This document shows, piece after piece, positions 3,107 through 28,567 of a stretch of DNA of 33,415 nucleotides (positions are counted from its first letter, which is position 1; each line of letters opens with the position of its first letter). The notes below the pieces were generated by a model, which searched no databases, was not told the origin of the DNA, and saw only the letters and a program-made list of their open reading frames with translations. This DNA is from a virus. The translations under genes and the position numbers were made by a program. The stretch spans positions 1-33,415 of the IMG/VR virus record IMGVR_UViG_3300035670_000807, one strand, 5' to 3'.

Positions 3107-3235
3107 ATGGGCAATCCGACTGCGGCTGGGTTCGGGAGGATAAACACCGGGGGCCCAGACCAAAGAGCAGACCGGGGGGATAGATCGGGAAGGACTGCAA
3201 CGAGGCGGCGAAGTCAGCACCTCACAGATCGATAA
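3107..3235 (+). CDS. Doubtful 42-aa basic ORF after the terminator
   Basis: An ATG directly after the T run opens a 42-codon frame rich in Gly, Arg and Thr. AGGGG seven bases upstream could serve as a ribosome site, but it lies in the terminator stem. The composition looks low-complexity, no family is recognised, and the stop is not coupled to anything. It may be untranslated RNA instead. Confidence 0.2.
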   Translation: MGNPTAAGFGRINTGGPDQRADRGDRSGRTATRRRSQHLTDR

Positions 3236-3351
3236 GGCTGGCGAGTCTATGCGGCTCCGAAGGCGAAGCGCGTAGTAAAGGAAGATTCGGTCTGTCCGAG
3301 GGATAGGCTGAGTCTTGCCCACCAAAGGCGAAGATATATAAGGGAGATGTG
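3236..3351 (+). other. Purine-rich non-coding leader before queD
   Basis: No convincing gene lies between 3107 and 3351. The stretch has the heptamer GGCGAAG three times (3207-3213, 3262-3268, 3327-3333), short hairpins such as TCGG-TCTGT-CCGA, and a TCTTGCC/GGCGAAGA pairing near 3312-3334. It may be a structured 5' untranslated region of queD. I could not match it to the preQ1 riboswitch patterns I know. Confidence 0.35.
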
Positions 3352-3675: not shown

Positions 3676-4361
3676 TCCATTACCATGGCACTCCGATCAC
3701 CCCGAGGGCAAAACTGCTGGAAATGTCTGGTCGGCACTTTTGCGTTTCGTTTGCTGACCCAAGAGACCTTGTGACTTGTCTCGAAATTGGGCAATCTCTA
3801 ATGATGGACAACGGGGCCTTCACCGCATACACCAAGGGCAAACCTTTGGATGAGGCTGGATTCGAGGCATGGTGCGAGCAATATCTCTGCGCTCCGAATT
3901 GGGCCGTGATCCCTGATGTCATTGGCGGAACAGTAGAGGAGCAACGAGCCCTCATCGGCAGATGGACTTTCCCGGTCGACTTGTCTGCTCCGGTCTGGCA
4001 TCTTCACTTGCCAATCGAGTGGCTTTTAGAACTTTGCGACCGTTTTCCAAAGGTCTGCCTGGGTTCGAGCGGCGACTTCTGGCAGATTGGCACTCGCAAG
4101 TGGACGCAGAGGATGGATCAAGTCTTTGAGGCCCTCTCGAAACACAGACGGTTCATCCCCTGGATTCATGGGATGCGGATGTTGGGGCAGGCCGATGGTG
4201 TTTGGCCCCTTGCGTCTGCCGACTCATCGAACATTGCGCGACACCATGCCGAACTCAGAATAAGCCCGGAGGTTATGGCGCAAAGGATCGACGCAATACA
4301 ACCCGCAAGGAAGTGGAAACCTAGTCCGCAAATCAGTTTGTTGGAGGAAGCAAATGGATGA
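3672..4361 (+). CDS. dpdA: DpdA-like transglycosylase (7-deazaguanine insertion into DNA)
   Basis: The 229-aa product fits the tRNA-guanine transglycosylase superfamily as phage DpdA versions do. M-M-D-N-G-A-F at 44-50 corresponds to the base-binding Asp loop. V-I-P-D-V-I-G-G is at 79-86, L-G-S-S-G-D at 130-135, I-H-G-M-R-M-L-G at 165-172 and S-A-D-S-S-N at 182-187, with Asp184 as the likely nucleophile. DpdA enzymes exchange guanine in DNA for a 7-deazaguanine, which blocks restriction enzymes. Start is GTG at the GTGA overlap with queD. FolE, QueE and QueC are not in the window, so precursors would come from the host. Assignment to a DpdA subgroup needs a profile search. Confidence 0.65.
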   Translation: MIHYHGTPITPRAKLLEMSGRHFCVSFADPRDLVTCLEIGQSLMMDNGAFTAYTKGKPLDEAGFEAWCEQYLCAPNWAVIPDVIGGTVEEQRALIGRWTFPVDLSAPVWHLHLPIEWLLELCDRFPKVCLGSSGDFWQIGTRKWTQRMDQVFEALSKHRRFIPWIHGMRMLGQADGVWPLASADSSNIARHHAELRISPEVMAQRIDAIQPARKWKPSPQISLLEEANG

Positions 4362-4734
4362 TTTTGAGACATTCTGGGCCGCATGGCCTCGCAAGGTCGC
4401 CAAGGCAGAGGCTCGCAAGGCGTGGGCTCAGACCGCCAGGGTTCGCCCTGATCTGCAAACCATTCTGAAAGCAATCACGGCGGCATCTGGCACAGAGCAG
4501 TGGATGAGGGGCAACGGTCAATTTATCCCTCACGCCGCCACTTGGCTACGCGGTGAGCGGTGGGAGGACGAGCATGAGGTTCGGCTTGCGGGTGTGGTCA
4601 ACGAGAAACCCTGGCATGAGACTGCCACGGGGATCGAGGCCAAGGGTGCGGAACTCGGCATCTTCCCGACCAATTTCGACTCCTGGCCCGCATTTAAGCA
4701 GGCAGTCATGCACCAAGTGATGAAGGCCGCATGA
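4354..4734 (+). CDS. Replication-protein C-terminal-like domain protein
   Basis: The 126-aa protein opens with F-W-A-A-W-P-R-K-V-A-K-A-E-A-R-K-A-W and has F-I-P-H-A-A-T-W-L-R-G-E-R-W-E-D-E at about 48-64. This pair of motifs is typical of the C-terminal part of phage replication initiators and DnaT-like helicase loaders, where they follow an HTH domain. Here the module stands alone. It might load the host helicase onto phage DNA; that is inference. It overlaps dpdA by 8 nt and the next gene by ATGA. Confidence 0.7.
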   Translation: MDDFETFWAAWPRKVAKAEARKAWAQTARVRPDLQTILKAITAASGTEQWMRGNGQFIPHAATWLRGERWEDEHEVRLAGVVNEKPWHETATGIEAKGAELGIFPTNFDSWPAFKQAVMHQVMKAA

Positions 4735-18883: not shown

Positions 18884-20534
18884 CACGACAATCCGAATCT
18901 CGGCGATAGACCAGACCCGCGAGGCATTTCGCTCAGTCCAGGCGAACATCTCTGGTCTGACAAAAAACTTGAAGGGTATGGCGGGGCCGATTGCGGCGGC
19001 ATTCTCTGTCGCGGCGGTCGGGGCATTTGCCAAGTCAATCATTGACACCGCCGATGCTCTGGGTGATCTTTCAGAGCAAACCGGAATCACCGTCACCGAA
19101 CTTTCCGCCCTGGGCAACGCCGCCCAATTCAACGGGTCGAGCGCAGAAGAATTCAACGACGCAATCGTTAAATTTCAGAAGTCACTTGCGGAGGCCCAGA
19201 AGGGTGTGGGTTCGCAATCTGATGCGTTCAAAACTTTGGGCGTTTCAATTAAAAACGCAGACGGTTCGTTCAAAGAAACCACAAAAGTTTTTTATGAGTT
19301 TGCTGATGCAATGTCCGTTACCCAAGAAGGAACGGTCAAGACAAAACTTGCACAAGAACTGTTGGGGAAAAGCAACGCAAAACTGATCCCGTTATTGAAC
19401 CAAGGATCAGAGGCCCTTAAAAACTACAAGGCTACTTTTGACGATGACTTTGTGAAGAAGTCGGGTGAATTCAACGACAACATCGACAAACTCAATAAAA
19501 ACTTTCAATCTCTCGGCGTGACTTTACTTGGCCCAGTGATCTCTGGGTTCAATAAATTTGCAGAAAGAATGAGAAGTGGGCTGACCGCTAATCAAATCAA
19601 GGAAATTGAGCGTCTTACTGAGATTTCAAAAGATTACGCAGACCGCGTTGATCGCATCATGGCAACCTCTGGGCAAAAAACTCAACGGGTGATGGTGGAC
19701 TCAGCGAAAGCGGCGCAAGAGCAAGCAAAAGAAATAGAGCGTCTTATTACCTTGTCAAAAGACTATTCAGACCGTGTGGATCGTATTGGAAAGCAAGAGG
19801 TCACTCGAAACAAATTAGCGGAAGAAAGCGGCAAGACGGCGGCAACCTTGTTGGAGATGATTAAGACTCCGACTGAACTCTATGGTGAAAAACTTAGGGT
19901 TGTTAATCAATTGCAACAGGACTTCTACTTAAACGCAGAGCAGTCTGCCCTCATCATTGAAAAACTTCGCGAGAACTTTGTTGGACTGCAAGAGGGGGTG
20001 AGGTTTGCGGGAATCTCGATTGATGACATCGGGCGAAATGCGTTTATGACCTTAGAGGACGGAATTGTTGGATTGATAAACGGCACAAAGGGACTCAAGG
20101 ACGCATTCCGAGAGATGGCGACCTCGATTGTGAACGACCTTTTGCGGATGTATATCCGTTATCAGATCACCAAACCTCTGTTCGACGCTATCTTTGGAAC
20201 GACCACTCAGGCGGCGGCTCCCATCGTGCAGGCATCGCCCGCAATCCCAACAGGACGAGCGATTGGTGGGCCTGTCTCATCCGGTGTCCCTTATATGGTC
20301 GGCGAGCGCGGGCCTGAGATGTTCATCCCAAATTCGTCTGGTGCAATCGTCCCGAACGACAAGATGGGCGAGGCCGCACCGACCATCGTGCAAAACATCA
20401 ACATTTCCACCGGAGTTTCTCAGACTGTTCGCACCGAGATCATGGCAATGTTGCCTAGAATAACGGAGGCCACAAAAGCGGCGGTCGCAGACTCCCGGCG
20501 GCGTGGCGGAACCTTTGCGAAAGCGTTTGCATAA
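18873..20534 (+). CDS. Tape measure protein
   Basis: The 553-aa protein has an N-terminal helical region (I-S-A-I-D-Q-T-R-E-A-F-R-S-V-Q), a hydrophobic segment around 30-55, A-D-A-L-G-D-L-S-E-Q-T-G, and at the C-terminus G-R-A-I-G-G-P-V and M-V-G-E-R-G-P-E-M-F-I-P. These are typical of lambda gpH-type tape measures. At about 1.5 angstrom per residue the tail would be roughly 80 nm. The central part is visibly more AT-rich than neighbouring genes and holds a 43-residue tandem duplication. Confidence 0.92.
   Translation: MANDTTIRISAIDQTREAFRSVQANISGLTKNLKGMAGPIAAAFSVAAVGAFAKSIIDTADALGDLSEQTGITVTELSALGNAAQFNGSSAEEFNDAIVKFQKSLAEAQKGVGSQSDAFKTLGVSIKNADGSFKETTKVFYEFADAMSVTQEGTVKTKLAQELLGKSNAKLIPLLNQGSEALKNYKATFDDDFVKKSGEFNDNIDKLNKNFQSLGVTLLGPVISGFNKFAERMRSGLTANQIKEIERLTEISKDYADRVDRIMATSGQKTQRVMVDSAKAAQEQAKEIERLITLSKDYSDRVDRIGKQEVTRNKLAEESGKTAATLLEMIKTPTELYGEKLRVVNQLQQDFYLNAEQSALIIEKLRENFVGLQEGVRFAGISIDDIGRNAFMTLEDGIVGLINGTKGLKDAFREMATSIVNDLLRMYIRYQITKPLFDAIFGTTTQAAAPIVQASPAIPTGRAIGGPVSSGVPYMVGERGPEMFIPNSSGAIVPNDKMGEAAPTIVQNINISTGVSQTVRTEIMAMLPRITEATKAAVADSRRRGGTFAKAFA
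19599..19791 (+). repeat. Tandem 43-codon duplication within the tape measure gene
   Basis: A block reading K-E-I-E-R-L-x-x-x-S-K-D-Y-x-D-R-V-D-R-I occurs twice, 129 bp apart (second copy about 19728-19791). About 16 of 20 residues match, while many third bases differ. An in-frame duplication would lengthen the tail by one unit. Confidence 0.75.
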
Positions 20535-21013
20535 TGGCGACTCAAGAACTTTTATATGAGATGGCAAAACACTTTCGAGCCGACTTCGAGGCTGGAAAAT
20601 TGTATTGGGTCGACTCTCGGTGCGGGAAAAAAGAGGCCGGGACACTCAAGAGCAAATTGAACAGGGTCTATGTAAAGTACAACGGCAAAAGTTATTTGCG
20701 ATACAGGGTTTTGTTTGCCCTTTATCATGGCTACTGGCCTTTTGGAGAGGTCGATCACCTTGATGGATGCTCATCTAATGACTCTATTTCAAATTTGAGG
20801 GATGTTCCGAGGGCGATCAATGCTAGAAATTGCAAGGTTAGAACCGACAACACCTCTGGTCAAACTGGCATTCGTTTCGAGGAAAAACTTGGAAAGTGGC
20901 GGGCTCGATTGGGTCATCGTCATCTAGGGGTTTTTGAGAACTTGAGCGAGGCGATTGTTTGTCGCAAAAACGCGGCACTTGAAAACTCATACACCGAAAG
21001 ACACGGAGCATGA
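20534..21013 (+). CDS. HNH homing endonuclease with AP2-like domain
   Basis: The 159-aa protein has V-D-H-L-D-G (73-78), N-D-S-I-S-N-L-R and R-A-I-N-A-R-N: the HNH_3 core. A C-terminal T-G-I-R-F-E-E-K-L-G-K-W-R-A-R-L with F-E-N-L-S-E-A forms an AP2-like DNA-binding domain. It sits between the tape measure and a tail tip gene, joined by TAATG at one end and ATGA at the other. Freestanding homing endonucleases spread by cutting insertion-free alleles. Composition is more AT-rich than downstream tail genes, which suggests recent arrival. Confidence 0.88.
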   Translation: MATQELLYEMAKHFRADFEAGKLYWVDSRCGKKEAGTLKSKLNRVYVKYNGKSYLRYRVLFALYHGYWPFGEVDHLDGCSSNDSISNLRDVPRAINARNCKVRTDNTSGQTGIRFEEKLGKWRARLGHRHLGVFENLSEAIVCRKNAALENSYTERHGA

Positions 21014-22184: not shown

Positions 22185-25055
22185 ATGGGCTTTTCGTTCA
22201 AAGGTTTATTCAAGGCGGTGGTCGTAGCGGCGGCAGTCGCGGCGGCAGTGTACTTTCTTGGCCCGACTTTCGGATATACGGTCGCGGCGGGGTCAATAAC
22301 AACTGCGGCGGTCGTGGCGGCGGCAACCTACACGGTGTCGTCGTTACTTGCGGAAACTCCAAAGAACTTCGATCTTGGCGAGCAACTCCGAGGGCAACTC
22401 ATCACCTCTCGGGCTCCCGCCGCAGATGCGCGGGTGGTCTATGGCGAGACCCGTTTGGGCGGAAACATTGTAATGGTGGAGACCACCGGATCGAAAAACG
22501 AGACGATGTTCCAAGCGATGACCATTGCGGGGCATGAAATCCAGTCTATCGAAACGGTCTATGTGAACGATGAGGCCCTCACCCTCAATCTGGTCGGCAA
22601 CGCCTACACGACCACCTACAAGGGCAATGCGACCGCCTTGTCGTTCAATTGGCTTCTTGGAACCGATACGCAATCGCCCATGCCGTTTTTCACCGGGACA
22701 ACGGCGGCGACCTATCCATTCAAGGGCATCGCGGTGCTAGGGGTCAAACTGGTTTACAACCAAGACACATTCCCCCAGGGCATTCCAAATATCACGGTCA
22801 AATTGCGCGGAAAGAAGGTCTATGACCCCCGCACGACCACCACCGCTTATTCCACAAACGCGGCCCTTTGCATCCGAGACTATTTGACCGACACGACCTT
22901 CGGCCTGGGTGCAACGGCGGCAGAGATTGACGACACCTCCTTCTCTGCGGCGGCGGACATCTGTGACGAGAATGTCACCCTGGCGGCAGGCGGAACCGAG
23001 AAGCGATACACGATCAACGGGGCCTTCTCCTCGGCAGAAAAGCCCAAAGAAGTCATCGCCAAGATGCTCACGGCCTGCGGCGGAAAACTGTCTTATGTCG
23101 GCGGCAAGTGGACTCTGCGGGTCGCCGCTTACCGCTCCCCGACCGTCACTCTGACTGAGGACGACATTGTTGGCCCCGTGACCATGCAGGCGTCTCAGTC
23201 CCGCCGCGACATCTTCAACGCGGTCAAGGGCACTTACTCTGAGCCGGGAACCCTGTATCAACCCGCATCCTTTCCACCCGTTACAAACGCCACCTATGAG
23301 TCTCAGGATGGCGAGCGCATCTGGAAGGATGTCCAGTTTCCCTTTACCACCTCTGCGGCGACTTGCCAACGACTTGCCAAGATCGACCTCGAAACCGCTC
23401 GCCAACAGATCAGTTTCACGGTGTCTTGCAAACTCACCGCCTTTTCCCTCCAGCCTGGGGACACGGTGAATGTGAACTTCGAGCGGTATGGCTGGACGAA
23501 TAAGGTGTTCGAGGTTTACAACTGGACTTTCAACATCGCGGACTCGGACTCTGGCCCGACTCCCCAGGTCGACCTTGTTTTGCGGGAGACCGCCTCTGGA
23601 ATCTACGACTGGAACACAGGCAACGAGACCCAGATCGACCTCGCCCCGAACACGAACCTTCCAGACCCCTTCGATGTCACCGCTCCAGGCATCACGATCA
23701 CAGACGAACTTGCGGTGATCTCCGAGGAGGTTCTGACTAAGTTAGTGGTTACCGTCGCTGGAGATAGCACATTTCAGGACTTCTATGAGGTGCAGGCCCG
23801 CAAATCAGGGGATGCAACCTATACAAACCTCGGGCAAGCCACGGGAACTCGGTTTGAACTGCCCAATGTGGAGGACGGGGCCACATACGAGGTGCGGGCT
23901 CGCTCCGTGAACGGCCTTGGGGTGCGCTCTGCCTACACGACTGGATCGCATCAGGTGGTGGGCAAGACGACCCCGCCTGCCGATGTGACCAACTTCTCCA
24001 TGAATATTGTTGGGGCCGAGGCCCATTTTACTTGGACACCAGTCCCAGACCTCGACCTCTCGCACTACAAGATCAGGCACTCCCGTCTGACCACCGGGGC
24101 CACTTACGCCGAGGCGGTCGACCTTATCTTCCGAATCGCTCGCCCTGGGGTGACTGCCGTCGCCCCGGCGATGACCGGAACCTACTTTATCAAGGCAATC
24201 GACAAACTCGGGAATGCGTCGGTCAACGCGGCTGAAATCGTGGCGATCATCGAGGACATTAAGGGCCTCAACGCGGTCGAGACCCTCACCGAGTCACCTA
24301 CTTTTGCGGGCAACAAGACCGAGTGCAATGTGGTCGATGGAACCCTGGTGCTGGACACGGCGGCAGACTTCGATGACATCTCGGGTCTTTTTGACGACAC
24401 CGAGGGCGAGTTTGATGCGGGCGGCGGGACTATTTCCACCACCGGAACCTATGACTTCTCCCAGGTGGTCGACTTGGGTGCGGTCTACACAAGCAGGGTC
24501 ACGGCCTTTGTGGAGGTCGGGCGGATCGACTATGTGAACACCTTTGACTCTGCGGTCGGTCTTTTTGACTCCCGAGAGGGTGACTTTGACGGGTCTCCGA
24601 ATGCGTTTGACGACACCAATGTGGAACTCCAAGTGTCGGTGACAAGCGATGACCCTTCGGGTTCACCAACATGGTCGGATTACCGCAAGTTTTTCGTGGG
24701 CGACTACAAGGCCCGAGGGCTCCGTTTTAGGGCGATTCTGACCTCCAGGGATGCCCAGGCCACCCCGTCCATCTCATCCCTGTCTGTCACGGTAGATATG
24801 CCCGACAGGGTGACTTCTGGGGATGATATAACCTCGGGAACTGACGCAGGCGGCAAGGTCGTGAACTTCGCCCCGGCGTTCAAAGCGGCCCCGGCGATAG
24901 GCATTGCGGCCCAGAATTTAACATCTGGCGACTATTATGAAATCGTCTCAAAATCTGCGTCTGGCTTTACAATACGATTCAAGAACTCAGGCGGCACGGT
25001 CGTCGATAGAACATTCGACTATGTGGCGCGTGGCTATGGCGAACTCGCCGCATAA
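22185..25055 (+). CDS. J-like tail tip/host specificity protein
   Basis: The 956-aa protein opens with a hydrophobic Ala/Val segment (about 9-57). The tail tip attachment body follows: A-D-A-R-V-V-Y-G-E-T-R-L-G-G and, farther on, C-I-R-D-Y-L-T-D-T-x-F-G-L-G and Y-T-I-N-G-A-F. Two fibronectin-III-like domains lie at about 505-680. Two copies of an F-D-x-x-x-G-L-F-D motif lie near 729 and 787, then a C-terminal beta domain. It would form the central tip and contact the receptor. The stop is 14 bases before the next gene. Confidence 0.9.
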   Translation: MGFSFKGLFKAVVVAAAVAAAVYFLGPTFGYTVAAGSITTAAVVAAATYTVSSLLAETPKNFDLGEQLRGQLITSRAPAADARVVYGETRLGGNIVMVETTGSKNETMFQAMTIAGHEIQSIETVYVNDEALTLNLVGNAYTTTYKGNATALSFNWLLGTDTQSPMPFFTGTTAATYPFKGIAVLGVKLVYNQDTFPQGIPNITVKLRGKKVYDPRTTTTAYSTNAALCIRDYLTDTTFGLGATAAEIDDTSFSAAADICDENVTLAAGGTEKRYTINGAFSSAEKPKEVIAKMLTACGGKLSYVGGKWTLRVAAYRSPTVTLTEDDIVGPVTMQASQSRRDIFNAVKGTYSEPGTLYQPASFPPVTNATYESQDGERIWKDVQFPFTTSAATCQRLAKIDLETARQQISFTVSCKLTAFSLQPGDTVNVNFERYGWTNKVFEVYNWTFNIADSDSGPTPQVDLVLRETASGIYDWNTGNETQIDLAPNTNLPDPFDVTAPGITITDELAVISEEVLTKLVVTVAGDSTFQDFYEVQARKSGDATYTNLGQATGTRFELPNVEDGATYEVRARSVNGLGVRSAYTTGSHQVVGKTTPPADVTNFSMNIVGAEAHFTWTPVPDLDLSHYKIRHSRLTTGATYAEAVDLIFRIARPGVTAVAPAMTGTYFIKAIDKLGNASVNAAEIVAIIEDIKGLNAVETLTESPTFAGNKTECNVVDGTLVLDTAADFDDISGLFDDTEGEFDAGGGTISTTGTYDFSQVVDLGAVYTSRVTAFVEVGRIDYVNTFDSAVGLFDSREGDFDGSPNAFDDTNVELQVSVTSDDPSGSPTWSDYRKFFVGDYKARGLRFRAILTSRDAQATPSISSLSVTVDMPDRVTSGDDITSGTDAGGKVVNFAPAFKAAPAIGIAAQNLTSGDYYEIVSKSASGFTIRFKNSGGTVVDRTFDYVARGYGELAA

Positions 25056-25069
25056 CAGGAGCAAACAGA

Positions 25070-25639
25070 ATGGCAACGCATGACTACAACATCGCAAACC
25101 AAGGTTTCCCGGCATTCCGGTCAGACCTTAACGATGCGCTCGCGGCGATAGTCTCTAACAACTCAAGCGCAACCGCTCCCGCAACGACCTTCGCCCATAT
25201 GATCTGGGTGGATACCGCCGCAGACCCGAGCGTGGTCAAGGTGCGGAACGCAGACAACGATGCCTGGATCACCCTGTTCCAACTAGACCAGACGAACGAT
25301 GTCTCGAACATTGCGGTCAAGAACGCCGCCCAGACCTTCACGGCCTCTCAGCGTGGGACTGTTACAACAGACAACGATGGTTCGTTTGATCTTTCTGTGA
25401 CAAACAATTTCCAATGCACACCCTCTGGCTCTATCACCCTGACCTTTACCAACCGCACCGCAGGGCAGAGTGGCTTTATCCTGCTCATCAATACAGGGGC
25501 GCATACGGTATCGGCTCATGCTGACACAGAGGTTTCCACGACTGCTCTGGCGACTATCTCAGCCGCAGGGACATATCTGCTTTCGTACTTCGCCACTTCG
25601 ACCAATGTATATGTCGTGAACTCTGGAGCGTTGGCTTAA
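25070..25639 (+). CDS. Small tail fibre/tip protein
   Basis: The 189-aa protein has an N-terminal T-H-D-Y-N-I-A-N-Q-G-F-P-A-F-R-S-D-L-N helix, typical of adapters in phage fibre proteins, then M-I-W-V-D-T-A and beta-rich repeats with a G-A-H-T-V-S strand. It likely sits on the tail tip. AGGAG lies upstream of ATG 25070 at normal spacing. Confidence 0.78.
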   Translation: MATHDYNIANQGFPAFRSDLNDALAAIVSNNSSATAPATTFAHMIWVDTAADPSVVKVRNADNDAWITLFQLDQTNDVSNIAVKNAAQTFTASQRGTVTTDNDGSFDLSVTNNFQCTPSGSITLTFTNRTAGQSGFILLINTGAHTVSAHADTEVSTTALATISAAGTYLLSYFATSTNVYVVNSGALA

Positions 25640-27024
25640 TGGCTATCCTACCTGTTGGCATCGGCTCCGCAGAAGAAGGCGGCTACCAGATCGAGCGCAG
25701 TCTGCGGTTTAACTCTGCTGACGATGCTTATTTAACCAGAACCCCTGCTGGCGCTGGCAACCGCAAGACTTGGACATGGAGTTCGTGGATCAAACTTGGA
25801 AGATTAGCCAACGCTTTTGAAAATCAAGACACAATTTTTAATGCTTACACAGATGACAACAATCGGGCGTCTATAATTTTTCAAGATAACGCAGAAAATA
25901 AATTTGATTTTTTCAGCATGACGGGCGGCTCTGTTAATGCACGATTAACGACTACACAGGCCTTTAGGGATTTTTCTGCTTGGTACCATGTAATCGTTGC
26001 AGTAGACACAACACAAGCAACTAATACTGATAGATTAAAGATGTATGTGAATGGGGTTCAAGTAACTGCTTTTAGTACGGCTACTTATCCTTCTCAAAAT
26101 ACTGACCTACAAATCAACACTGCTTCTGCACACGACATAGGAGCAAGTAGGTTTAGCGGGTCGGTAGGGCCGTATTACTACGATGGTCTAATGACCGAAG
26201 TTCATTTTGTAGATGGTCAGCAACTAAGCCCAACAGACTTCGGTGAATTCAACTCAGACACAGGTGTATGGCAACCCATCGAGTACACAGGCACTTACGG
26301 TACTAACGGGTTCTATCTCGACTTTGCGGATAACAGCAGCACGACCACTCTGGGCTACGATGCGGCTGGCTCTAATGACTGGTCAACCTCTGGATTTAGT
26401 GTAACTGCGGGTGCTGGCAATGATTCTCTGGTGGACTCACCGACACGCTATGGCACAGACACAGGTGCTGGTGGTGAGGTGCGGGGGAATTACGCTACTT
26501 GGAATCCGCTTGATACTCGGGGAGGTGCGGTTCCAATCGATGGCAATCTTAATCCTGGGGTAGATAATAGTAAGGGTGTTCGAGGAACTGTCGGAGTAAC
26601 TTCTGGGAAGTGGTACTGGGAATTTACTTTAGTAACTGCCTCTACTGATTATGCTATTGGTATTAGTAATCAGAATCCATTTGGGACTTATGTTGGCTCT
26701 AATACTGACAGCGTTGGTTATGTTGCCGCTGGCGGGGAAGTTCTGAGAAACGCATCCGTTATTCAAACTTATGGAGCGTGGAATACTAGCGGCAAGGTTG
26801 TCGGATTTGCGCTAGATCAAGATGCGGCTACTTTGCAACTATTTGTAGATGGAGTGTCGCAGGGGGCTGCGTTTTCTCACTCGCTGGCTGGAACAATTTT
26901 TCCAATGATTAACTTTGGAACTGGGTATGGGACTCCAACTGGAGCAATTAACTTCGGTCAACGCCCATTCGCATTTTCAGCGCCATCAGGATTTAAGGCT
27001 TTGGTAACTACAAATCTCCCATGA
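25639..27024 (+). CDS. LamG + SPRY-like fibre protein, N-terminal half of a split gene
   Basis: The 461-aa protein has a LamG/concanavalin domain (about 20-190: S-L-R-F-N-S-A-D-D-A-Y-L, W-S-S-W-I-K, W-Y-H-V-I-V, M-Y-V-N-G-V-Q) and a SPRY-like second domain (about 300-455: G-K-W-Y-W-E-F-T, F-V-D-G-V-S-Q, I-N-F-G-Q-R-P-F). It stops right after K-A-L-V-T-T-N-L-P. In similar fibres the chain normally continues into a Y-F-x-x-x-x-Y-T-G-N-G domain, which here begins at 27551 after an HNH gene. The region is AT-richer than the rest. Confidence 0.85.
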   Translation: MAILPVGIGSAEEGGYQIERSLRFNSADDAYLTRTPAGAGNRKTWTWSSWIKLGRLANAFENQDTIFNAYTDDNNRASIIFQDNAENKFDFFSMTGGSVNARLTTTQAFRDFSAWYHVIVAVDTTQATNTDRLKMYVNGVQVTAFSTATYPSQNTDLQINTASAHDIGASRFSGSVGPYYYDGLMTEVHFVDGQQLSPTDFGEFNSDTGVWQPIEYTGTYGTNGFYLDFADNSSTTTLGYDAAGSNDWSTSGFSVTAGAGNDSLVDSPTRYGTDTGAGGEVRGNYATWNPLDTRGGAVPIDGNLNPGVDNSKGVRGTVGVTSGKWYWEFTLVTASTDYAIGISNQNPFGTYVGSNTDSVGYVAAGGEVLRNASVIQTYGAWNTSGKVVGFALDQDAATLQLFVDGVSQGAAFSHSLAGTIFPMINFGTGYGTPTGAINFGQRPFAFSAPSGFKALVTTNLP

Positions 27025-27563
27025 TGCACATTCATCATATTATCCCTAAGCACATGGGCGGCACAGACGACCCAGAGAATCTTATTGAGTGCAGTATTGA
27101 AGAACACGCCCAGCACCATAAACAATTATGGGAAAAGCATGGGCATGAGTGGGACAGGATTGCGTGGCTTTCTTTATCTGGTCAAGTGTCTGTTTCTGAT
27201 GCTAGGCGTCTGGCCCAGTTGGAAGGTGCTAAACGAGGGGGCTCTATCTCTGCGGCTATCCGCAAAGAAAAAGGCAACGACATTGGCACATGGAACAGAA
27301 TCACGGGCAATGTCAAAACGATTGCCACAAAAGAAGGCATGGCAAAGGGTGGCTCAATTGTTGGCAAGATGCTTGTCGAGGATGGTCGCTGGGAAAAGAT
27401 TAGAAGTCTTGGCTCTGTTGCTGGTGGCAAGGCCACTATGAGCAAATTAAACTCTACTAAATGGCGTTGCGTTGAGTGTGGGATGGTGTCGACAACTGGC
27501 GGCATTGGCAACCATCAGCGTGGGTCTGGTCACAAAGAAAAGGAACTTGTATGCCAGTCATAG
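27021..27563 (+). CDS. HNH endonuclease inserted between the fibre halves
   Basis: The 180-aa protein starts M-M-H-I-H-H-I-I-P-K-H-M-G-G and continues N-L-I-E-C-S-I-E-E-H-A-Q-H-H, the HNH motif. A central region repeats the A-K-x-G-G-S-I motif of DNA-binding modules. The end is C-V-E-C with G-N-H and G-H, a possible zinc finger. Its ATG overlaps the upstream stop and its stop overlaps the next start by 13 nt. No intron sequence surrounds it. Confidence 0.88.
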   Translation: MMHIHHIIPKHMGGTDDPENLIECSIEEHAQHHKQLWEKHGHEWDRIAWLSLSGQVSVSDARRLAQLEGAKRGGSISAAIRKEKGNDIGTWNRITGNVKTIATKEGMAKGGSIVGKMLVEDGRWEKIRSLGSVAGGKATMSKLNSTKWRCVECGMVSTTGGIGNHQRGSGHKEKELVCQS

Positions 27564-28567
27564 ATCGTGGCGATGACTATTTTCAAGCAGGAACATATAC
27601 GGGCAATGGCTCCACGCAGACCATTACTGGCTTGCGATTCCAGCCGGATTTCGTTTGGATCAAGGGACGGTCTGGTGCAACTGACCATGCGCTCTATGAT
27701 GCGGTCAGGGGAGTGCAGAAACAGTTAGAGAGCAATCAGACTGGCGCAGAGTCTACCGAGACAACGGGCCTGACTGCATTTACCTCTGATGGGTTCACTG
27801 TTGGCTCTCTTGCACAGGTCAATACCAATGCGGCTACTTATGCTTATTGGGCATGGAAAGCCAATGGCTCTGGTGTAAGCAACACCGATGGCTCGATCAC
27901 CAGCACAGTCTCAGTCAATACAACGAGTGGGTTCTCGATTGTTACTTATACGGGTAACAGCACTAATGGGGCTACCGTTGGGCATGGTTTGGGTGTTGTC
28001 CCATCTATGGTTATAGTCAAATGTAGGACGCTTGCGGAATCATGGCATTGTTATCATGTCTCTTTAGGAAACGCTCAAAAAATACTGTTAAATAGTACCG
28101 CCGCCGTTAGTGCAACTTCCGTCTGGAATAGCACCACACCAACATCATCTGTCGTTACTTTTAACGATGACACGGCAGTAAATGATTCAGGTCAAACCTA
28201 TGTCGCTTACTGTTTCGCTCCTGTCGCTGGGTATTCTGCGTTTGGGTCATACACAGGCAATGGTTCGGCTGACGGGCCGTTTGTTTACACGGGCTTCCGT
28301 CCTAGGTATGTGATGATTAAAATTGCAACTGGCGATACAGGTCAATGGGTAATTTATGACACGGCTAGAGATACTTATAACGCTATGGATTTAGAACTGC
28401 AAGCAGAGTCATCAAACGCCGAAAATCAACTTGGGTCAAACCCAATAGACTGTCTTTCTAATGGCTTCAAAATTAGGTCAACAACTTTGAGGATCAATAG
28501 AAGCACATCGACATTTATTTACATGGCATTCGCAGAAAACCCCTTTGCCTACTCTCTTGCACGATAA
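27551..28567 (+). CDS. Fibre protein C-terminal half (DUF7483-like), split from the upstream gene
   Basis: I chose ATG 27551, with AAAGGAA 5 nt upstream, rather than the longer frame from 27476 that is a shadow of the HNH gene. The 338-aa product starts P-V-I-D-R-G-D-D-Y-F-Q-A-G-T-Y-T-G-N-G-S. It has repeated blocks of F-Q-P-D-F-V-W-I-K-G-R-S and G-F-R-P-R-Y-V-M-I-K, and ends near F-A-E-N-P-F. These match the C-terminal domain that usually follows LamG/SPRY units in one chain. It probably assembles with the N-half to make the fibre. Confidence 0.85.
   Translation: MPVIDRGDDYFQAGTYTGNGSTQTITGLRFQPDFVWIKGRSGATDHALYDAVRGVQKQLESNQTGAESTETTGLTAFTSDGFTVGSLAQVNTNAATYAYWAWKANGSGVSNTDGSITSTVSVNTTSGFSIVTYTGNSTNGATVGHGLGVVPSMVIVKCRTLAESWHCYHVSLGNAQKILLNSTAAVSATSVWNSTTPTSSVVTFNDDTAVNDSGQTYVAYCFAPVAGYSAFGSYTGNGSADGPFVYTGFRPRYVMIKIATGDTGQWVIYDTARDTYNAMDLELQAESSNAENQLGSNPIDCLSNGFKIRSTTLRINRSTSTFIYMAFAENPFAYSLAR

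What the first reader, a model, noticed from the sequence alone, without database searches (positions are those of the whole stretch)
25639..28567. Tail fibre gene split in two by an HNH endonuclease
The LamG/SPRY protein ends at K-A-L-V-T-T-N-L-P. The downstream protein begins P-V-I-D-R-G-D-D-Y-F. Related fibres join these parts in one chain, as I recall the family. The HNH gene fills the gap with no leftover sequence. Its start overlaps the first stop, and its 3' end carries a ribosome site for the second half. The three reading frames are all different. This parallels phage nrdA genes split by homing endonucleases and implies a two-chain fibre.
Basis: partly seen in the sequence, partly recalled or inferred. 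Interest (0 to 1): 0.72.

Follow-up and report, generated by a model that had tools for sequence, protein, structure and literature searches.

The report
Phage fibre gene split by nuclease
In this uncultured phage a selfish DNA-cutting gene sits exactly at the joint of a tail-fibre gene that is a single gene in most relatives, and three unrelated kinds of such cutting genes occupy that same joint in other phages, so the fibre is probably built from two chains and the joint looks like a repeatedly colonised landing site.

Summary
A LamG/SPRY fibre half (25639-27024), an HNH gene (27021-27563) and a DUF7483 fibre half (27551-28567) follow one another in three reading frames with overlapping ends. 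Relatives, including the syntenic cultured phage CRP-811, carry both halves in one chain joined at ...NLP-x-P...; here only residue x is lost, replaced by the start Met of half 2. Of 147 distinct relatives surveyed, 122 are fused and 16 have a nuclease gene exactly at this joint. Those nucleases belong to three unrelated groups: the window-type HNH, a second HNH group and GIY-YIG. Nine are split with nothing between; cultured Pelagibacter phages share that state. Each nuclease gene ends inside half 2's coding sequence and supplies half 2's ribosome site. Each nuclease group at the joint is one lineage, yet its carriers are not one clade, so nucleases have moved between joints or replaced one another. 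The parallel with split nrdA holds. The claim that this HNH itself made the split is unproven: the split may be older than its present occupant, and the number of fissions is unresolved. A two-chain fibre is likely but untested. This is a new variant of a known kind.

The parts
25639..27024 (+). Fibre half 1: LamG-like N-terminal part plus SPRY domain, 461 aa, ends ...ALVTTNLP-stop
   Evidence: alignment to one-chain relatives
27021..27563 (+). Free-standing HNH homing-endonuclease-like gene (180 aa): H..N..H motif at the N-terminus and a C-terminal Cys-Cys-His-His zinc-finger-like segment
   Evidence: Pfam HNH, phrog_655; relatives at the same joint; dN/dS about 0.18 against L006
27021..27024 (+). 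ATGA overlap: HNH start codon and half 1 stop codon
27540..27544 (+). AAGGA ribosome-binding-site-like motif for half 2, inside the HNH coding sequence
27551..27563 (+). 13-nt overlap: the HNH reading frame takes its stop codon from half 2 coding sequence
27551..28567 (+). Fibre half 2: DUF7483 protein, 338 aa, starts MPVIDRGDDYF

Best explanation
A free-standing HNH homing-endonuclease gene occupies the linker between the SPRY and DUF7483 domains of a phage fibre protein that is one chain in most relatives. The gene is a minimal cassette. Its start codon overlaps the stop of half 1. Its 3' end carries the ribosome site and start codon of half 2 and takes its own stop codon from half 2 codons. 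Translation would pass from half 1 to nuclease to half 2. The two fibre chains fold as separate domains and assemble into the virion without the covalent link. The nuclease probably cuts fibre genes that lack it, or carry another nuclease, at or near this joint during co-infection, so that repair copies it and nearby fibre DNA into them. Shown here: anatomy, uninterrupted relatives, recurrence, three nuclease families at one joint, discordance between nuclease and fibre trees, purifying selection on the nucleases. Inferred: DNA cutting, homing, two-chain assembly.
For: Fused relatives with the joint intact, e.g. L002 ...APSGFKALVTTNLP-TPTIEDGGDYF; the syntenic cultured phage CRP-811 has one 796-aa gene...CTANLPDPVIDP, between the same neighbours. 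122 fused, 16 nuclease-split and 9 bare-split loci. All nuclease loci share the joint, an overlap of 10-17 nt with half 2 and a ribosome-site-like motif. Each nuclease family at the joint is one lineage against relatives elsewhere (support 92, 99, 100), while the carriers of each family are not one clade on the half 2 tree (AU p 3e-4, 1e-4, 4e-5). L007/L015: identical nuclease and 94-100% identity over the next 400 nt, then 59%; half 1 is 75% then 58%. The joint lies in a coil between two well-predicted domains of a fused relative (mean pLDDT 88, pTM 0.89). No intron was found.
Against: Bare two-gene forms exist, so the split may be older than the nuclease. The nuclease-split carriers as one clade are rejected in one data set (p 0.008) and not in another (p 0.74), so the number of fissions is unknown. 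Fused pairs also show blocks of identity that begin at the joint, so general module shuffling can mimic homing. Nuclease activity and target are untested; the HNH model is of low confidence (mean pLDDT 67) and has no PDB match at E 0.001.
Confidence: 0.72

Rival explanations
1. The fibre was already two genes in this lineage, by chance fission or ancestrally, and nucleases of several families later settled in the boundary between them, as T4 mob and seg genes sit between genes. The HNH then split nothing.
For: Bare two-gene relatives, environmental and cultured. Within clades of split genes the nuclease type varies. The nuclease-split carriers as one clade are not rejected in the 69-row set.
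Against: Fused genes predominate (122 of 147) and lie at deep branches of a midpoint-rooted tree. The bare forms have different joints and mostly group apart from nuclease-split ones. The syntenic CRP-811 gene is fused.
Confidence: 0.35
2. Ordinary fibre-module shuffling at a conserved linker explains the pattern; the nuclease is a passenger and homing plays no part today.
For: Fused pairs L003/L011 and L017/L055 show the same step change at the joint.
Against: Identity blocks next to the joint (88% or more) occur in 5 of 105 nuclease-split pairs against 5 of 2368 fused pairs, though pairs are not independent and two of the fused ones involve L320, which overlaps or nearly duplicates L003. The nucleases keep dN/dS of about 0.07-0.5. 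Joint-specific lineages exist in three unrelated nuclease families.
Confidence: 0.2
3. The halves are rejoined, by RNA splicing, intein or split-intein trans-splicing, or ribosome bypass, so the fibre is still one chain.
For: The outcome would match the fused relatives.
Against: No intron in Rfam. The insert is filled by the nuclease ORF, with no room for a ribozyme. Half 1 ends at NLP and half 2 begins at M-P with no intein residues. Frames differ, with stop codons between.
Confidence: 0.02

Closest known systems
Phage Aeh1 nrdA split by the HNH gene mobE (reviewed in PMC2988022; original Friedrich et al. 2007, cited there)
   Same: A free-standing HNH gene inside a normally contiguous essential gene. 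For the T4 form of mobE the start codon overlaps the upstream stop (PMC2988022). In Aeh1 two polypeptides assemble into an active enzyme.
   Different: Here the target is a virion fibre, the joint lies between two domains rather than in a functionally critical region, and three unrelated nuclease groups use the same joint. Function of the two chains is untested.
T4 gene 60/39 split by mobA, and Aeromonas phage 25 gene 43 with a seg-like gene against the 44RR spacer form (PMC2988022)
   Same: Split coding regions with a homing endonuclease between them; for gene 43 a nuclease-free split form also exists, so it is uncertain which came first, as here.
   Different: Those are replication enzymes, one lineage each; here several lineages of a fibre family are affected.
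SegH and Hef replacing mobC and mobE in T4-related phages (Sandegren et al. 2005, cited in PMC2988022; paper not read here)
   Same: Different homing endonucleases occupy one locus in related phages.
   Different: There the loci lie between genes; here the locus is the joint inside a gene that is intact in most relatives.
Fractured genes with split inteins and a homing endonuclease between the halves (Dassa et al. 2009, listed among the references of PMC3653736; known from memory, not read here)
   Same: Two gene halves separated by an endonuclease gene.
   Different: No intein halves here, so no trans-splicing is expected.

Membership tests
Free-standing HNH homing endonuclease | HNH catalytic motif | tested here: met
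   Pfam HNH above its cut-off (22.7 against 21.4 bits) and phrog_655 homing endonuclease 1.3e-7; conserved His, Asn and His positions among joint relatives. The model is weak.
Free-standing HNH homing endonuclease | Own ORF not inside an intron or intein | tested here: met
   No Rfam intron; no extra residues at either border and different frames
Free-standing HNH homing endonuclease | Cuts a target near its own insertion site in phages that lack it | not testable with these tools
   Needs enzyme assay
Free-standing HNH homing endonuclease | Lateral spread to the same site in other genomes | tested here: met
   Joint lineage is one clade but its carriers are not; the clearest identity block, L007/L015, belongs to the second HNH group. 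General recombination is not excluded.
[quoted passage not shown]
   122 fused loci; CRP-811, MEP301, CRP-406 and S-B43 in culture
[quoted passage not shown]
   Bare splits exist and the number of fissions is unresolved
[quoted passage not shown]
   Indirect only: separable domains in the model and cultured two-gene phages
Intein or split intein | Intein residues at the ends of the halves | tested here: not met
   Half 1 ends NLP and half 2 begins M-P as in fused chains

The most novel reading that the evidence does not exclude
The joint of this fibre family is a landing site contested by at least three unrelated homing-nuclease families that evict one another while each supplies the ribosome site and start codon of half 2. 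Their cutting would drive exchange of receptor-binding modules between phages, so selfish nucleases would help shuffle fibres and perhaps host range.
Probability: 0.3. Interest if true: 0.75.

Novelty: new variant of a known kind. Interest (0 to 1): 0.55.

Why it matters
Genes split by free-standing homing endonucleases are documented for a few replication and metabolic enzymes. I found no report of one in a virion fibre, nor of three unrelated nuclease groups using the same joint (the literature search covered open-licence papers only). Fused, bare-split and nuclease-split forms coexist, so the order of events (fission first or nuclease first) and the effect on fibre-module exchange can be tested by sequence sampling and simple biochemistry. 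Annotation also matters: such fibres are easily miscounted as two unrelated genes.

Tried and rejected
Intron: no Rfam match except an unrelated RNA at 3124-3246. Intein or split intein: excluded by the borders and frames. Shared DNA-binding module explaining why different nucleases use one joint: compared the window-type C-terminal part with the GIY-YIG C-terminal part and with the second HNH group; hhalign probability 0.6% and 1.4%, rejected. Shared 3' tails between families as a trace of swaps: only one strong case, L019/L179, 12 nt; suggestive only. Many independent fissions, first suggested by 11 fused/split changes on a FastTree: weakened by AU tests that disagree. The identity block in L007/L015 as proof of homing: weakened by the fused control. 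Half 1 tree: too few resolved branches to use. PDB search with the HNH model: nothing usable. Literature on DUF7483: none found. First HNH scan of viral contigs with the whole protein found nothing; the N-terminal part and an alignment worked.

Full report
WHAT IS THERE. Half 1 (25639-27024), the HNH gene (27021-27563) and half 2 (27551-28567) lie head to tail on the + strand in three different frames. The HNH start codon overlaps the half 1 stop (ATGA). An AAGGA motif at 27540-27544 stands 6 nt before the half 2 ATG, inside the HNH gene. The HNH reading frame runs 13 nt into half 2 and takes its TAG from half 2 codons. Pfam finds SPRY in half 1, HNH in the middle gene and DUF7483 across almost all of half 2. 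Both halves match the two ends of phrog_19943, a 1227-aa virion protein family.

UNINTERRUPTED RELATIVES. In IMG/VR relatives the two halves are usually one chain joined at ...NLP-x-P-x-I.... In the alignment of L002, L034 and L061 with the window, half 1 ends at the P of NLP and half 2 resumes at the next P; one residue is replaced by the start Met. The best phage matches to the neighbouring tail protein (22185-25055) are Roseobacter phages. In CRP-811 the same gene order holds, and the fibre between the same neighbours is a single 796-aa gene with ...CTANLPDPVIDP at the joint. MEP301, CRP-406 and S-B43 are also fused.

A SHARED JOINT. Among 147 distinct DUF7483 loci, 122 were fused; 16 had a nuclease gene between the halves, and one more (L004) has a GIY-YIG gene there but its contig begins at that gene, so its half 1 is not seen; nine were split with nothing between. 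Part of the surveyed loci were found by searching with the nucleases themselves, so these numbers are not population frequencies. The nucleases fall in three groups: window-type HNH (window, L006, L008, L016, L234, L231, L232), a second HNH group matching phrog_374 (L005, L007, L015, L019, L073, L097, L098), and GIY-YIG with NUMOD3 (L022, L179, L004). In every case half 1 ends NLP (or NL, NLA) and half 2 starts with Met followed, with two exceptions, by Pro. Every nuclease overlaps the half 2 start by 10-17 nt, takes its stop codon from half 2, and carries a ribosome-site-like motif before it. The only other interruptions seen within either half were two short gaps without a nuclease.

HISTORY. 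On the half 2 tree, carriers of each nuclease family are not one clade (AU p 3e-4, 1e-4 and 4e-5). Against relatives found elsewhere in phage genomes, each nuclease family at the joint is a single clade (support 92, 99, 100). Nuclease and fibre therefore have different histories: nucleases moved between joints or displaced one another, or fibre parts moved. In the L007/L015 pair the nuclease is 99-100% identical, the next 400 nt of half 2 is 94-100%, then identity falls to 59%; half 1 is 75% in its last 100 nt and 58% beyond. L073/L098 and L231/L232 are similar but weaker. L019, L004 and L231 share 78-97% over the first 400 nt of half 2 although each has a different nuclease family. A control limits this: fused pairs L003/L011 and L017/L055 show the same step change without any nuclease, so the joint is also a general module boundary. 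Such blocks are more frequent among nuclease-split pairs (5 of 105 against 5 of 2368), but pairs are not independent.

HOW MANY SPLITS. FastTree needs 11 fused/split changes and IQ-TREE 8. A single clade of all nuclease-split carriers is rejected with 27 rows (p 0.008) but not with 69 rows (p 0.74). I treat the number and direction of events as unresolved. Cultured pelagiphages HTVC011P, Greip and HTVC024P have two adjacent genes with a 1-nt overlap, and HTVC204P two genes with a short spacer, so a two-gene fibre is compatible with infectious phages.

STRUCTURE. AlphaFold2 of the fused relative L034 gives mean pLDDT 88 and pTM 0.89. Residues 446-453, which hold the joint, are coil between the SPRY part and the DUF7483 part. 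Foldseek matches to the PDB are SPRY domains. A break there would leave both domains whole. The window HNH model is of low confidence (mean pLDDT 67) but shows strand-strand-helix at the HNH motif and a zinc-finger-like end.

MECHANISM. Most likely a homing endonuclease gene uses this joint as its site and its tight overlaps keep both fibre halves translated. Homing, cutting and two-chain assembly are inferred. dN/dS between pairs of joint nucleases is about 0.07-0.5 (0.18 for window/L006), which argues that the genes are functional.

KNOWN AND NEW. The nearest precedents are Aeh1 nrdA/mobE, T4 gene 60/mobA and phage 25 gene 43 (PMC2988022). Phage RNR genes split in several ways are surveyed in PMC3653736. 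New here are the fibre target, the single joint used by three nuclease groups, and the coexistence of fused, bare-split and nuclease-split forms. I file it as a new variant of a known kind.

Noticed in passing
window 20534-21013 (+): A second, unrelated free-standing HNH gene (HNH_3, phrog_99) between the tape-measure-like gene and the next tail gene, overlapping its neighbours at both ends in the same tight way.
   Followed up: no
window 3124-3246 (+): Rfam RF02932 (Betaproteobacteria-1 RNA) at 61 bits, above its gathering score; possibly a hint to the host or a phage RNA.
   Followed up: no
L003/L011 and L017/L055, first 400 nt of the DUF7483 part: Fused fibres share 81-100% over about 400 nt after the joint and then diverge to about 50%, so the start of DUF7483 behaves as an exchangeable module without any nuclease.
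   Followed up: partly
L019 and L179, 12 nt before the half 2 start: Two unrelated nuclease genes (second HNH group and GIY-YIG) end in the same 12 nt TAAGGAAGTAAT before ATG, as if swapped by recombination in this short tail.
   Followed up: partly
L396 (ctXG6705), 3999-4463: A phrog_374-like HNH gene sits directly downstream of a fused fibre gene, overlapping its stop by one base.
   Followed up: no
L398 (Patescibacteria MAG contig), 49-2025: SPRY and DUF7483 fibre sequence broken into several ORFs, either decay or sequencing errors.
   Followed up: no
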